Source: a virus
DNA: 51,339 bases
Strand: one strand, 5' to 3'
Virus record (IMG/VR): IMGVR_UViG_3300021197_000064
Span: 1-51,339 of that record
Part shown: positions 18,065 through 25,558 of the stretch, in pieces
Layout: the number at the start of each line of letters is the position of its first letter
How positions within the stretch are numbered: the first letter of the stretch is position 1
Made by a program: the position numbers and the translations under genes
The notes under the pieces: generated by a model
What the model saw: the letters and a program-made list of their open reading frames with translations, nothing else
The model's database searches: none
What the model was told of the DNA's origin: nothing

Positions 18065-18427
18065 TTAGGCTGCTTCTCTACTACTCCAGTAAATAGTTCC
18101 GTAGTCGTGTAGTATTTCTTGTCCTTTGGCTATGTTTTGAAGTGCGTAGAACCTAATAAAGTTATCGTCTTCTTCATTTACATCCCACTCTGCATTAGGA
18201 GTTTCGCTGTGATTGTATATCATAGCCAATCCTAATGGAATGCAGTACAAATTATCCTCCCCTTCATAGGGAGAATAAAACATGTAGTCGTGAAGAACAC
18301 ACTCATTGCCTATATCGTTTTCACTAGAAACCAGATAAGGACATAACTCTATAGTATCACCTACAGAATAGTCCTTATCTGCAAAAACTCCTAGACCGTG
18401 TATTTTAGATTTAGCTACGTAAGGCAA
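18065..18427 (-). CDS. SET-domain protein, putative protein-lysine methyltransferase
   Basis: 120 residues, almost entirely a minimal SET domain. The pattern is the classic one: GLGVFA at 11-16 (S-adenosylmethionine-binding end), YNHSETPNAEW at 71-81 (the NHSxxPN core), and GQEILHDYG at 102-110 (catalytic Tyr region). SET enzymes transfer methyl groups to lysine side chains. Length is short for the family but includes all signature strands; no post-SET Cys cluster is present. The upstream neighbour (18428-18817, one base away) is extremely lysine-rich, so a lysine substrate within the phage is a plausible inference, not shown. Phage and bacterial SET homologues exist, so this is not unique. 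Confidence 0.8.
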   Translation of the reverse strand: MPYVAKSKIHGLGVFADKDYSVGDTIELCPYLVSSENDIGNECVLHDYMFYSPYEGEDNLYCIPLGLAMIYNHSETPNAEWDVNEEDDNFIRFYALQNIAKGQEILHDYGTIYWSSREAA

Positions 18428-18817
18428 TTACTTCTTCTTTTTTGCCATGCCGCCACGCATCATCTTCTTTTTCTTGGCCATTTTAGCCATGCCGCCGCCC
18501 ATCATTTTTTTCTTCATCATGCCGCCGCCACGCATTTTTTTCTTTTTAGCCATCTTAGCCATTCCGCCACCAGCCATTTTACGTTTCATCATACCACCTC
18601 CACGCATTTTTTTCTTAGCCATTTTAGCCATACCACCTTTTGCTGCTGTCATAGTAGACTTTTTCTTCTTAGGTGTAGCTTTTGCAAAATAGTCTTGCAT
18701 AATTTTTTTGATTTCGATATCGTCAAAACCATCAGATTTAAGACGTTTTTCTGCTTCTTTCATTTCCTTGCGGATACGCTTACCGACACTATCATCTGTA
18801 TCTTTATCACTAGCCAT
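18428..18817 (-). CDS. Lys/Met/Gly-repeat protein
   Basis: 129 residues. Residues 1-50 are a normal helical region (KRIRKEMKEAEKRLKSDG ... IKKIMQDYFAK). Residues 60-129 are about four tandem copies of a (G)GGMAKMAKKKK-MRGGGMMKKKM type repeat, ending RGGMAKKKK. Such extreme basic repeats suggest DNA or RNA binding, or packaging within the virion. It is the direct upstream neighbour of the SET-domain gene. The repeats are also visible at DNA level. I know no function for it. Confidence 0.72.
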   Translation of the reverse strand: MASDKDTDDSVGKRIRKEMKEAEKRLKSDGFDDIEIKKIMQDYFAKATPKKKKSTMTAAKGGMAKMAKKKMRGGGMMKRKMAGGGMAKMAKKKKMRGGGMMKKKMMGGGMAKMAKKKKMMRGGMAKKKK

Positions 18818-23222: not shown

Positions 23223-23244
23223 AACTGTCCGACATCGGACACTT
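23223..23244 (+). repeat. early palindrome, copy 2
   Basis: Core GTCCGA-CA-TCGGAC with the flanks AACT and ACTT. It lies 11 nt downstream of a stop codon and 45 nt upstream of the ATG at 23290, so it sits between two genes. Confidence 0.8.
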
Positions 23245-23289
23245 TGGGTCACCATCACGGTGGCCCATTTTTTATTGGAGAAAATCGAC

Positions 23290-23529
23290 ATGACAAAACG
23301 CAATCCACAATGCACTACACTCATCCGCAATTTCAATGCGAGGGGTGTGGTGTCTAGCTGGGCAGCTATGGACACAAAGGCATACAGCCATAGCTATGAG
23401 CCTGAGACACGTCCTGAGTTCCAGTGCTTTGTCGGCGGACAAGCAAAGGCTATGGCGGACGAGTACCAGCGCAAAGTCGATGCCGCCGGATGGCAGGACG
23501 TTATCAACCTGCTTGGCAAAAACACTTAG
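23290..23529 (+). CDS. small hypothetical early protein
   Basis: 79 residues from the ATG at 23290, preceded by TTGGAG. Contains MTKRNPQCTTLIRNFNARGV, YSHSYEPETRPEFQCFVGGQ and a helical end (ADEYQRKVDAAGWQDVINLL). No family recognised. Its stop lies inside the left arm of the large stem-loop A, so translation through it could influence folding. Confidence 0.6.
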   Translation: MTKRNPQCTTLIRNFNARGVVSSWAAMDTKAYSHSYEPETRPEFQCFVGGQAKAMADEYQRKVDAAGWQDVINLLGKNT

Positions 23530-23591
23530 TAGTTCTTACGTGATAAGCACACTTGAACTTTAGTGAAAGTGTGTTATCACTTAGAACTACT
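23528..23591 (+). ncRNA. large stem-loop A (composite element with palindrome copy 3)
   Basis: Left arm 23528-23554 and right arm 23567-23591 pair almost completely, with one mismatch and short bulges, around the 12-nt loop GAACTTTAGTGA. The inner stem contains GTGATAA / TTATCAC. The identical loop and inner stem recur in element B at 25198-25256, while the outer stems differ but remain complementary. It ends 2 nt before palindrome copy 3. Whether it acts as RNA or as DNA is unknown; I label it as a candidate structured RNA. Confidence 0.55.
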
Positions 23592-23593
23592 TA

Positions 23594-23615
23594 AACCGTC
23601 CGACATCGGACACTT
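23594..23615 (+). repeat. early palindrome, copy 3
   Basis: Core GTCCGA-CA-TCGGAC with flanks AACC and ACTT, directly after stem-loop A and 15 nt before the ATG of 23631-23873. Confidence 0.82.
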
Positions 23616-23630
23616 CAAACGGAGTTCGTT

Positions 23631-23873
23631 ATGATTACAAACAAGCGTGATTTTCTTCGTGACAGCGATTGGCAATGGCTCAAGCTGTCTGGTAAAACTC
23701 GCCACGGCAAGAACCGTATTGCCCAGCATGGCATACATTGGCTTGTAAAAGCTGATGGCGTGTTCAATGGCGAACCTGCATGGCTTGTGTCATCTATGCA
23801 CAAGACTGACCGTGGTGGTTTTGATGGTCGCTGGATTCTGAAACAGAATGACCCTAACTTTAACGTCAATTAA
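23631..23873 (+). CDS. small early hypothetical protein
   Basis: 80 residues; the ATG follows GGAG at 6-nt spacing (23621-23624). Contains MITNKRDFLRDSDWQWLKLS, IHWLVKADGVFNGEPAWLVS and GFDGRWILKQND. Trp and Asp are frequent. No family recognised. It is flanked by palindrome copies 3 and 4. Confidence 0.62.
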   Translation: MITNKRDFLRDSDWQWLKLSGKTRHGKNRIAQHGIHWLVKADGVFNGEPAWLVSSMHKTDRGGFDGRWILKQNDPNFNVN

Positions 23874-23894
23874 ACCGTCCGACATCGGACACTT
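23873..23894 (+). repeat. early palindrome, copy 4
   Basis: Core GTCCGA-CA-TCGGAC with flanks AACC and ACTT, overlapping the stop of the preceding gene and 15 nt before the ATG of 23910-24317. Confidence 0.82.
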
Positions 23895-23909
23895 TCAATG
23901 GAGTTAAAC

Positions 23910-24317
23910 ATGACACAGCAAGAATTTGACCTTATCCGTGACCTTCACAAAGAGGCACGTGGTCGCCGTCCGTCCTACGATTGGGATGTATGGTTCGACA
24001 GCCTGTCGCTTACCGATAAGCAAGGCGTCTGGAATGGCTTGGTTGACGAGTCACAGGACCGTGACAACGAGGAGGCTCGTGCGGAGCAACGGTGTTGCCG
24101 CCAGTTCCGTGATGCCATCCGTGCCACAATGAGGGCTGGTGCGCCGTCTGTAGACGATGCACTGTCATGGCTCTATGGCTACCATGCCCACGGCGTTAAG
24201 CCATACAGTGTTCAGGACATTGAGCATTGGGTATGGGATTTAGGCATCCTATTCACTCCGCTTGGCAAAGCTGTTGTCGAGCGTCTTGACGCTATCACAG
24301 ATTACAAGGAGTGGTAA
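23910..24317 (+). CDS. early hypothetical protein
   Basis: 135 residues from the ATG at 23910 (GGAG 6-9 nt upstream; an ATG at 23898 is adjacent to the palindrome and less likely). Contains MTQQEFDLIRDLHKEARGRR, WDVWFDSLSLTDKQGVWNGL and SWLYGYHAHGVKPYSVQDIE. Helical and aromatic-rich. No family recognised. Confidence 0.6.
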   Translation: MTQQEFDLIRDLHKEARGRRPSYDWDVWFDSLSLTDKQGVWNGLVDESQDRDNEEARAEQRCCRQFRDAIRATMRAGAPSVDDALSWLYGYHAHGVKPYSVQDIEHWVWDLGILFTPLGKAVVERLDAITDYKEW

Positions 24318-24488
24318 ATGTGTACTACGCTTGACATAATCATAGGCATGGTGCTACTGTTTTTTGGTAGCATTGCCTTGATATTTTCTGTCCTTGACGG
24401 ACATTTCTGGGCAGCACTTGGTGGCACGGCGTGTGCTATCGGCGGCTGTAAACACATGATGGATGCAATCCACGGGAGAAGCAGATGA
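24318..24488 (+). CDS. small two-span membrane protein
   Basis: 56 residues (MCTTLDIIIGMVLLFFGSIA ... FWAALGGTACAIGGCKHMM). Two hydrophobic segments near residues 5-24 and 28-43, with several Cys. It begins one base after the upstream stop and overlaps the next start by 4 nt (ATGA). Possible membrane-active early protein; function unknown. Confidence 0.6.
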   Translation: MCTTLDIIIGMVLLFFGSIALIFSVLDGHFWAALGGTACAIGGCKHMMDAIHGRSR

Positions 24489-25186
24489 CTTATTCGATTA
24501 TCGGTGTTGGCAATAATGCAAAGACAATCAAAGGTGATGGCTCTGAATACATAACAGCCATCCGTTACCTCAAGCCATTTAAGACCGTGTTCAAAGGCAA
24601 GGTACACAACCTGTGTGCTATGGCGGAGAAAGCACAGTGCCATGTCGGCTGTCTGTTTACGGCAGGACGTGGGCAAATGTCTAGCGTACAGCGTGGCAGA
24701 GAACGCAAGACAATGCTTTTGCTGTCGGACCCTGTGGCATTCTATGATGCCTTGTATAAGGACATTGAGACATTCCAAAGGCGTTGTCTCAAAAACATGA
24801 TAACACCTTGCATACGACTAGGCGGTACGGATGACAAGGGGGATGGCATACGCATTGCCAAGCTGTTCCCCTTGTCACAGTTTTATGACTACACAAAGGT
24901 AGTCAAACGTGCCTATCAGGATTTGCCTGACAACTACCATATCACGCTGTCTTACAGCGAGGCTGACATGGACTATGCCGACAAGGTATATCAGGCAGTG
25001 CTTGACACTGGCGTAAACATGGCTGTGGTGTTTCGTGACAAGCTACCTGCTACGTTCCGTGGCTTGCGTGTCATTGACGGTGACAAAGATGACTTGCGCT
25101 TTCTTGATCCCAAAGGTGTAGTCGTTGGCCTCAAAGCCAAAGGCAAGGCAAAGCGTGATGACACTGGATTTGTCATTGACAACTAG
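24485..25186 (+). CDS. conserved phage/plasmid protein of unknown function
   Basis: 233 residues. Recognisable segments: FSIIGVGNNAK-type start (IIGVGNNAKTIKGDGSEYIT), a CHVGCLFTAGRG motif with nearby VQRGRERKT, then IRLGGTDDKGDG, FPLSQFYDYTKVVKRAYQDL, NYHITLSYSEADM, FRDKLPATFRG and VIDGDKDDLRFLDPKGVVVG. I remember this pattern (GRG-RxRKT, FYDYTK, LRFLD-VVGLKAKG) as a widespread but uncharacterised family in phages and plasmids, and I do not assign a name. The two close Cys in CHVGC and the RG-R motif suggest a nucleic-acid or metal site. Its stop is 12 nt before stem-loop B. Confidence 0.68.
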   Translation: MTYSIIGVGNNAKTIKGDGSEYITAIRYLKPFKTVFKGKVHNLCAMAEKAQCHVGCLFTAGRGQMSSVQRGRERKTMLLLSDPVAFYDALYKDIETFQRRCLKNMITPCIRLGGTDDKGDGIRIAKLFPLSQFYDYTKVVKRAYQDLPDNYHITLSYSEADMDYADKVYQAVLDTGVNMAVVFRDKLPATFRGLRVIDGDKDDLRFLDPKGVVVGLKAKGKAKRDDTGFVIDN

Positions 25187-25197
25187 CAACCCCTTAT

Positions 25198-25256
25198 GTA
25201 TACCTTATGTGATATACACTTGAACTTTAGTGAAAGTGTTTATCACTTAGGTATAC
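25198..25256 (+). ncRNA. large stem-loop B (composite element with palindrome copy 5)
   Basis: Left arm 25198-25221 and right arm 25234-25256 pair around the loop GAACTTTAGTGA, identical to that of element A. The inner part is GTGATATACACTT / AAGTGTTTATCAC; the outer part is GTATACCT / AGGTATAC, which differs from A (AGTAGTTCT / AGAACTACT) but is complementary. It ends 3 nt before palindrome copy 5. Unknown function. Confidence 0.55.
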
Positions 25257-25259
25257 TAG

Positions 25260-25281
25260 AACTGTCCGACATCGGACACTT
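25260..25281 (+). repeat. early palindrome, copy 5
   Basis: Core GTCCGA-CA-TCGGAC with flanks AACT and ACTT. Follows stem-loop B and lies 12 nt before the ATG of 25294-25449, overlapping the ribosome binding region (GGAG just after it). Confidence 0.82.
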
Positions 25282-25293
25282 GGAGATTTGACA

Positions 25294-25449
25294 ATGCGTA
25301 CTAAGACAATCAACCCTGTAGCCAAGGCACTCCTACAGAGTAATCGCAGACGCCAACAAGTAGTGCCTGACAAAACAAAGTACAATCGTAAGAAGGACAA
25401 GCACGATGCAAATCAAGCTAGAAAACATGAAGAACCAAAAGACAACTAA
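25294..25449 (+). CDS. short basic early protein
   Basis: 51 residues (MRTKTINPVAKALLQSNRRR ...), very basic and hydrophilic. Its ATG follows GGAG at 8-nt spacing. It overlaps the next gene by 44 nt. Too short for a confident family; may bind nucleic acid. Confidence 0.5.
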   Translation: MRTKTINPVAKALLQSNRRRQQVVPDKTKYNRKKDKHDANQARKHEEPKDN

Positions 25450-25558
25450 GCCAGAAGGCAAGCGTGACCATTGGCGTGAAGAAAAGAAACGCAAGCAAAA
25501 CATACGGCGTATGGCACGGCGTAACGTACAGCAAACACAGGAGCGTAACTATGGATAA
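25406..25558 (+). CDS. short basic early protein 2
   Basis: 50 residues from the ATG at 25406, preceded by GAAGGA. Contains MQIKLENMKNQKTTKPEGKR and KKRKQNIRRMARRNVQQTQE. Strongly positively charged. It overlaps the following gene's start by 8 nt. Function unknown. Confidence 0.5.
   Translation: MQIKLENMKNQKTTKPEGKRDHWREEKKRKQNIRRMARRNVQQTQERNYG

What the first reader, a model, noticed from the sequence alone, without database searches (positions are those of the whole stretch)
23528..25281. Two composite stem-loop plus palindrome elements with covarying stems
Elements at 23528-23591 and 25198-25256 share an identical 12-nt loop (GAACTTTAGTGA) and an inner GTGATAA-like stem. Their outer stems differ in sequence (AGTAGTTCT/AGAACTACT against GTATACCT/AGGTATAC) but each is self-complementary. 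This compensatory pattern supports selection for structure. Each ends 2-3 nt before a copy of the GTCCGA-CA-TCGGAC palindrome, which itself sits at the ribosome-binding region of the next gene. The pair could be a processing, attenuation or regulatory RNA element, or a DNA cruciform site. I do not recognise it.
Basis: partly seen in the sequence, partly recalled or inferred. Interest (0 to 1): 0.75.

Follow-up and report, generated by a model that had tools for sequence, protein, structure and literature searches.

The report
Capped RNA hairpins in marine phages
Between the early genes of abundant ocean phages sit long hairpins whose arms change freely but always stay paired, while a 12-13-letter cap stays nearly fixed; this is an uncatalogued phage RNA element, probably one that helps process or control the early messenger RNA.

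Summary
The two hairpins are real (23528-23591, 25198-25256; z about -7). They belong to an RNA family with no Rfam match. Its cap, CUU-GA-(U/A/-)-AC-UUUA-GU-GA-AAG, sits on arms that differ completely between copies yet stay paired. In IMG/VR, 48 of 49 exact cap matches (44 stretches) lie on long hairpins. The reversed 18-mer gives 1 match. A variant pattern gives stems in 1 of 109 hits. In 257 Gb of cellular genomes, 0 of 11 matches had a stem. On 90 elements, 15 of 16 pairs show double changes; covariation is 0.463 against 0.168 shuffled (pairs next to the cap were preselected). Copies number 1-5 per record, in the same sense as the adjacent genes. They occur in HMO-2011-type phages and at least two unrelated podovirus groups for which no common protein was found. 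This points to an RNA-level element, possibly read by a host factor. The adjacent GTCCGA-CA-TCGGAC palindrome is a separate feature that looks like a DNA operator: it occurs without the hairpin, in both orientations, and inside ORFs. Best mechanism: RNase III-type processing or stabilising hairpins of early mRNA. The cap's ligand is unknown and the mechanism is untested.

The parts
23528..23591 (+). Capped hairpin 1: outer stem 9 bp, internal loop UAC/UU, inner stem 7+7 bp with one bulged G, cap
   Evidence: fold -36.9 kcal/mol for 23518-23612, z -7.2; R1 match E 1.2e-11; stem parse
23552..23569 (+). Cap 18-mer CTTGAACTTTAGTGAAAG of hairpin 1
   Evidence: exact match; 44 IMG/VR stretches, nearly all on hairpins
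25198..25256 (+). Capped hairpin 2: outer stem 8 bp, internal loop UAU/UU, inner stem 6+6 bp with a U.U mismatch, cap
   Evidence: fold -34.5 kcal/mol for 25190-25282, z -7.0; R1 match E 3.4e-11; stem parse
25219..25236 (+). Cap 18-mer CTTGAACTTTAGTGAAAG of hairpin 2
   Evidence: exact match
23598..23611 (.). Palindrome GTCCGACATCGGAC beside hairpin 1; separate feature, probable DNA operator
25264..25277 (.). Palindrome GTCCGACATCGGAC beside hairpin 2; separate feature, probable DNA operator
23631..23873 (+). ORF downstream of hairpin 1 (80 aa, no family match); its GGAG lies about 8 nt after the palindrome
24485..25186 (+). ORF upstream of hairpin 2: L5 gp88 family (PF17338); it ends 11 nt before the hairpin
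25295..25450 (+). Start codon ATG and short ORF downstream of hairpin 2 (below the 60-aa listing limit; extent read from the sequence)

Best explanation
It is a cis-acting RNA hairpin of the phage's polycistronic early mRNA. It has a near-invariant apical cap (GA/GA mismatch module plus C-UUUA-G tetraloop) on a long, freely drifting duplex of about 20-25 bp that often carries an asymmetric internal loop 13-14 bp below the cap. Shown: the structure is conserved by covariation, the cap is conserved in sequence, the copies face the same way as their genes, they lie in gaps before genes, and they occur in several unrelated phage groups. Inferred: when the early operon is transcribed the duplex folds in each gap and is cut or bound by a host double-strand-RNA enzyme, most likely RNase III as at the T7 early intercistronic sites, giving separate, end-protected mRNAs. 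The cap would fix the position of the cut or recruit the factor. In a minority of copies the outer arm also pairs with the Shine-Dalgarno sequence, so translation control may be added there.
For: 48 of 49 exact cap matches in IMG/VR crown long hairpins with unrelated arms, against 1 match for the reversed cap, 1 of 109 stems for a variant pattern and 0 of 11 in cellular genomes. In one search, caps with no insert, U or A mostly sit on stems, while nearly all 2-nt inserts do not. Covariation 0.381 vs 0.141 +/- 0.013 shuffled and 0.463 vs 0.168 +/- 0.011, slid versions 0.10-0.15. The flanking pair U-A switches to A-U or C-G, and the inner C-G to U-A, together. All mapped elements lie in the sense of their adjacent genes, including G005/G006 where + and - copies lie in + and - gene clusters. 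Lengths mostly 20-27 bp; 25 of 86 have the first internal loop of 3 nt or more at 13-14 bp from the cap. No protein family was found common to the three phage groups and no RNase III gene in 29 of these records, so any such enzyme would be the host's. RNase III is known to process T7, T3 and lambda RNAs (PMC5371410).
Against: No transcript or cleavage data exist here. Bacterial RNase III is not known to need a fixed apical sequence (own knowledge), so the conserved cap points to something more specific. Stem length varies widely (17-38 bp), and in L022 the stems are nearly perfect 17-19 bp helices without the internal loop. In HMO-2011 one copy lies in the leader before the first early gene, where there are no two cistrons to separate. 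Several HMO-2011-type phages lack the element, so it is not essential to the group.
Confidence: 0.45

Rival explanations
1. The cap is the binding site of a specific RNA-binding protein that controls translation or stability of the next gene; the duplex only presents the cap.
For: The cap is conserved in sequence, not only in shape, while arms drift. SD lies a short way downstream, and in 28 of 88 elements the SD pairs with the 5' arm with probability 0.5 or more.
Against: The SD is not masked in most copies, including window hairpin 1 (0.07) and hairpin 2 (0.37). No protein family was found common to the phage groups, so the protein would have to be the host's, yet no exact-cap hairpin was found in cellular genomes.
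Confidence: 0.28
2. The nascent hairpin binds host RNA polymerase directly and makes it resistant to terminators, as HK022 putRNA does.
For: Early-region location, RNA structure with conserved unpaired bases, no shared phage protein found, and an intrinsic terminator in the window's early operon at 23245-23267. HK022 putRNA acts without a phage factor (PMC9378689).
Against: put has two long stem-loops near each early promoter; here one hairpin is repeated in successive gaps, 5 times in L022. The second palindrome is dispensable and behaves as DNA. The terminator at 23245 lies upstream of both window hairpins.
Confidence: 0.12
3. The hairpin acts as DNA: a cruciform or single-stranded hairpin for a replication, recombination or transcription protein.
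For: Arms are almost purely Watson-Crick; G-U pairs (5) hardly exceed A-C mismatches (2).
Against: Always in the sense of the adjacent genes where mapped, even within one genome with divergent clusters, and between genes.
Confidence: 0.1
4. Ordinary intrinsic terminators or attenuators.
For: Hairpins closely follow stop codons.
Against: No U-run follows; neither hairpin is among the terminator-like sites, whereas a typical one at 23245-23267 is. Many stems are A+T-rich and the cap is conserved.
Confidence: 0.03

Closest known systems
RNase III processing sites of T7/T3 early mRNA and the lambda N leader
   Same: Long co-oriented hairpins in gaps between early genes or in the leader; several per genome; duplex of roughly two turns, often with an internal loop
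   Different: A near-invariant 12-13-nt cap across unrelated phages is not a feature I know of those sites; cleavage not shown
HK022 putRNA
   Same: Phage early-transcript RNA that needs no phage protein
   Different: One repeated hairpin in successive gaps instead of one two-stem put near each early promoter; no sequence relation was tested directly
Mycobacteriophage L5 stoperators (compared with the palindrome only)
   Same: Short repeated sites in short gaps of the early region; neighbouring genes are L5 gp82 and gp88 homologues
   Different: Here the site is a palindrome found in both orientations; L5 sites are asymmetric 13-mers tied to transcription direction (PMC9283540)
Rfam 15 families
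   Same: Weak hits to miRNA precursors only because of the long hairpin shape
   Different: No family reaches its gathering score

Membership tests
Any Rfam 15 family | Score above the family's gathering cut-off | tested here: not met
   Window and six loci: 0 matches; E-value mode gave only miRNA models and one PrrB/RsmZ match outside the hairpins, all far below gathering
Intrinsic terminator | G+C-rich stem followed by a U-run | tested here: not met
   Not listed by the terminator scan, no U-run downstream
T7-type RNase III processing site | Co-oriented hairpin of about 20 bp or more in early intercistronic gaps | tested here: met
T7-type RNase III processing site | Cleavage by host RNase III | not testable with these tools
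   No transcript data; no RNase III gene found in the phages with PF14622
HK022 putRNA | Two adjacent stem-loops in about 70 nt | tested here: not met
   Second palindrome absent from many element-bearing genomes and found without the hairpin
HK022 putRNA | Suppression of termination through the RNAP beta' zinc-binding domain | not testable with these tools
   needs a transcription assay
L5 stoperator (palindrome) | Asymmetric site oriented with transcription | tested here: not met
   GTCCRA-YR-TYGGAC is a dyad and its flanks occur in both orientations
L5 stoperator (palindrome) | Many sites in short intergenic spaces | tested here: met
   3-7 sites per genome in most palindrome-bearing genomes, clustered in the early region; some lie inside ORFs
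HMO-2011-type phage (the window) | DNA polymerase and core genes of the group | tested here: met
   DNA polymerase 81.5% identical to HMO-2011 over the full length; core clusters shared

The most novel reading that the evidence does not exclude
The cap is a new RNA signal read by an unknown host factor (a nuclease, ribosome- or RNA-polymerase-associated protein). Unrelated marine phages use it in their early gaps without encoding any protein partner.
Probability: 0.35. Interest if true: 0.8.

Novelty: new variant of a known kind. Interest (0 to 1): 0.62.

Why it matters
HMO-2011-type phages are described as dominant and widespread in the ocean (PMC9038755), and I found nothing published on how they control gene expression. 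A strictly conserved RNA cap on drifting stems, repeated in the early operons of unrelated phages, marks a strong selective pressure and suggests a specific ligand. It can be tested in cultured phage-host pairs (HMO-2011, CRP-1, CRP-345). It would also add a new structured-RNA family.

Tried and rejected
Intrinsic terminator: no U-run, not found by scan. Sigma-70 -35 box (TTGAAC/TTGATA inside the cap): rejected because the flanking pairs change together with their partners (TAGAAC..GTGATA, CCTGAAC..GTGAAGG). Mobile repeat: copies share no arm sequence. Mimic of a cellular RNA: no cap-bearing hairpin among 11 exact matches in 257 Gb of genomes. Phage RNase III: none found. Shared phage protein: HMMs of 93 HMO-type families found none common to the G005 and L022 groups, but L022 is a 12-kb fragment. 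SD masking as the general mechanism: only 28 of 88. G-U versus A-C strand test: too few events. GNRA-type cap search (TTGAANGTAANTGAAA): essentially chance hits, used as a control. Hairpin scan of element-less relatives: too noisy to use. Weak R2 hits in HTVC120P and HTVC115P: false on folding. Phylogenetic profile for a palindrome-binding protein: no clear candidate.

Full report
Observation. Both hairpins are present at the stated coordinates on the + strand, with the stated arms and an identical 12-nt loop. Folding gives -36.9 and -34.5 kcal/mol for the flanked regions, z-scores -7.2 and -7.0, with no shuffle as stable. The palindrome GTCCGACATCGGAC has five exact copies and one imperfect copy in the window. 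The gaps between hairpin and palindrome are 6 and 7 nt, not 2-3.

Where it lies. The window is a 51.3-kb virus record. Its DNA polymerase is 81.5% identical to that of Puniceispirillum phage HMO-2011 over the full length. The hairpins lie in the + strand cluster of small genes that precedes the integrase, primase and polymerase genes. Hairpin 2 follows a gene of the L5 gp88 family, and an L5 gp82 homologue is the next gene with a family match downstream.

The family. An exact search of IMG/VR with the 18-mer CTTGAACTTTAGTGAAAG returned 44 stretches with 49 matches. On folding, 48 of the 49 crown a long hairpin. The arms differ completely between phages (TAATTATTAGTT, GGGATTACCC, ACAGTTAATATAGTA, GTGATAAGCACA and others), and the one exception (L044) lies inside a large ORF. 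Nothing in the search selected for pairing beyond the three cap pairs. Three controls support this. The reversed 18-mer has one match. A variant pattern of comparable length, TTGAANGTAANTGAAA, gave a stem of at least 5 bp in 1 of 109 distinct hits. The same cap in 257 Gb of bacterial and archaeal genomes gave 11 matches, none with a stem. A wider search allowing 0-2 inserted bases shows that caps with no insert, U or A mostly sit on stems, while 2-nt inserts almost never do.

Covariation. On 51 elements (A1) 11 of 13 stem pairs have changes on both sides; the covariation score is 0.381 against 0.141 +/- 0.013 in shuffles and 0.11-0.16 when slid. On 90 elements (A4) it is 15 of 16 pairs, 0.463 against 0.168 +/- 0.011, slid 0.10-0.15. 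Caution: the pairs nearest the cap were preselected for pairing in both sets, and the A4 set was chosen with a GA...GA pattern, so the unselected result and the outer pairs carry the weight. Rows are also related. Covariance models found further copies whose caps vary in the terminal loop (UUUA, UCUA, AUA, GUA, GUAA, AUUA and others), the inner pair (C-G to U-A) and the flanking pairs (U-A to A-U or C-G), while the GA/GA mismatch is usually kept. A few matches lack it, so it is not absolute.

Architecture. From cap outwards: GA/GA mismatch, an inner helix that in many copies runs 13-14 bp, an asymmetric internal loop (often UAY/UU), then an outer helix of about 8-10 bp; most elements total 20-27 bp. 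A 5' UUAYG and a 3' CUUA occur together around the internal loop in 23 of 86 elements, against 2 of 105 control placements.

Distribution and context. Whole-record scans show 1-4 copies per genome in most records and 5 in the L022 contig. Each mapped copy faces the same way as its adjacent genes, including G005 and G006 where + and - copies lie in + and - gene clusters. The few copies that overlap an ORF overlap short ORFs from a crude caller that takes the first possible start codon; I do not regard these as genes read through the hairpin. Sixteen of 19 contigs analysed share the HMO-2011-type core. G005/G006/G012 and L022 are different podovirus-like groups, with portal families phrog_156 and phrog_1216 as best hits. 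Among cultured phages it is found in HMO-2011 (3 copies), CRP-1 (1) and CRP-345 (1), and not in CRP-2, -3, -207, -212, -235, -603, -738 or HTVC033P. Families built from HMO-type phages gave no protein common to all groups, and no RNase III gene was found. It has no Rfam match, and the HMO-2011-type genome paper does not contain the words hairpin, promoter, terminator or non-coding (PMC9038755).

The palindrome is something else. Across the fetched loci GTCC-N6-GGAC with complementary inner bases occurs in 277 distinct contexts, against at most 12 for control palindromes. In genomes that have it there are mostly 3-7 copies, clustered in the early region. It occurs without the hairpin, and hairpins occur without it. 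Its asymmetric flanks (AAACC...ACTTT) occur in both orientations, and several copies lie inside ORFs. These are properties of a DNA operator rather than an RNA hairpin.

Mechanism. Sense orientation, intergenic position and cap asymmetry favour action as RNA. The duplex length and position resemble the RNase III sites of T7 early mRNA, so processing and end protection of early mRNA by a host double-strand-RNA enzyme is the best single guess, with the cap as a positioning or recruiting signal. That step is inferred, not shown. Translation control through SD pairing fits only 28 of 88 copies and neither window copy well. A put-like antiterminator fits the lack of a phage partner but not the repetition in successive gaps. 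The DNA reading is not excluded by the wobble test (5 G-U, 2 A-C).

Verdict. A real, strongly conserved, uncatalogued phage RNA element. Its identity as a conserved structure is secure; its mechanism is open.

Noticed in passing
window 22508, 23227, 23598, 23877, 25264, 25933: Repeated early-region palindrome GTCCRA-YR-TYGGAC with flanks AAACC/ACTTT in both orientations; probable DNA operator of an unidentified phage regulator, in a region with L5 gp82/gp88 homologues
   Followed up: partly
window 23245-23267: Intrinsic-terminator-like hairpin (TGGGTCACCATCACGGTGGCCCA then TTTTTTATTG) directly after the palindrome at 23227, between the first early gene and the next
   Followed up: no
window 18426-18637: Tandem-like direct repeats within a - strand ORF, suggesting a repetitive protein segment
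   Followed up: no
L016 11866-11913 and L004 12816-12863: Extra hairpins with cap variant TGAATGTAAATGAA in the G005-type phages, beyond the UUUA-capped copies
   Followed up: partly
L045 1074-1236: Weak PrrB/RsmZ-like match (E 0.025, 22.4 bits against a gathering score of 44) in the early region of an HMO-type contig
   Followed up: no
L006, L026, L042 (leader-type element): In the copy before the first early gene the hairpin extends to about 33 bp, and its outer arm pairs with the Shine-Dalgarno AGGAG
   Followed up: partly
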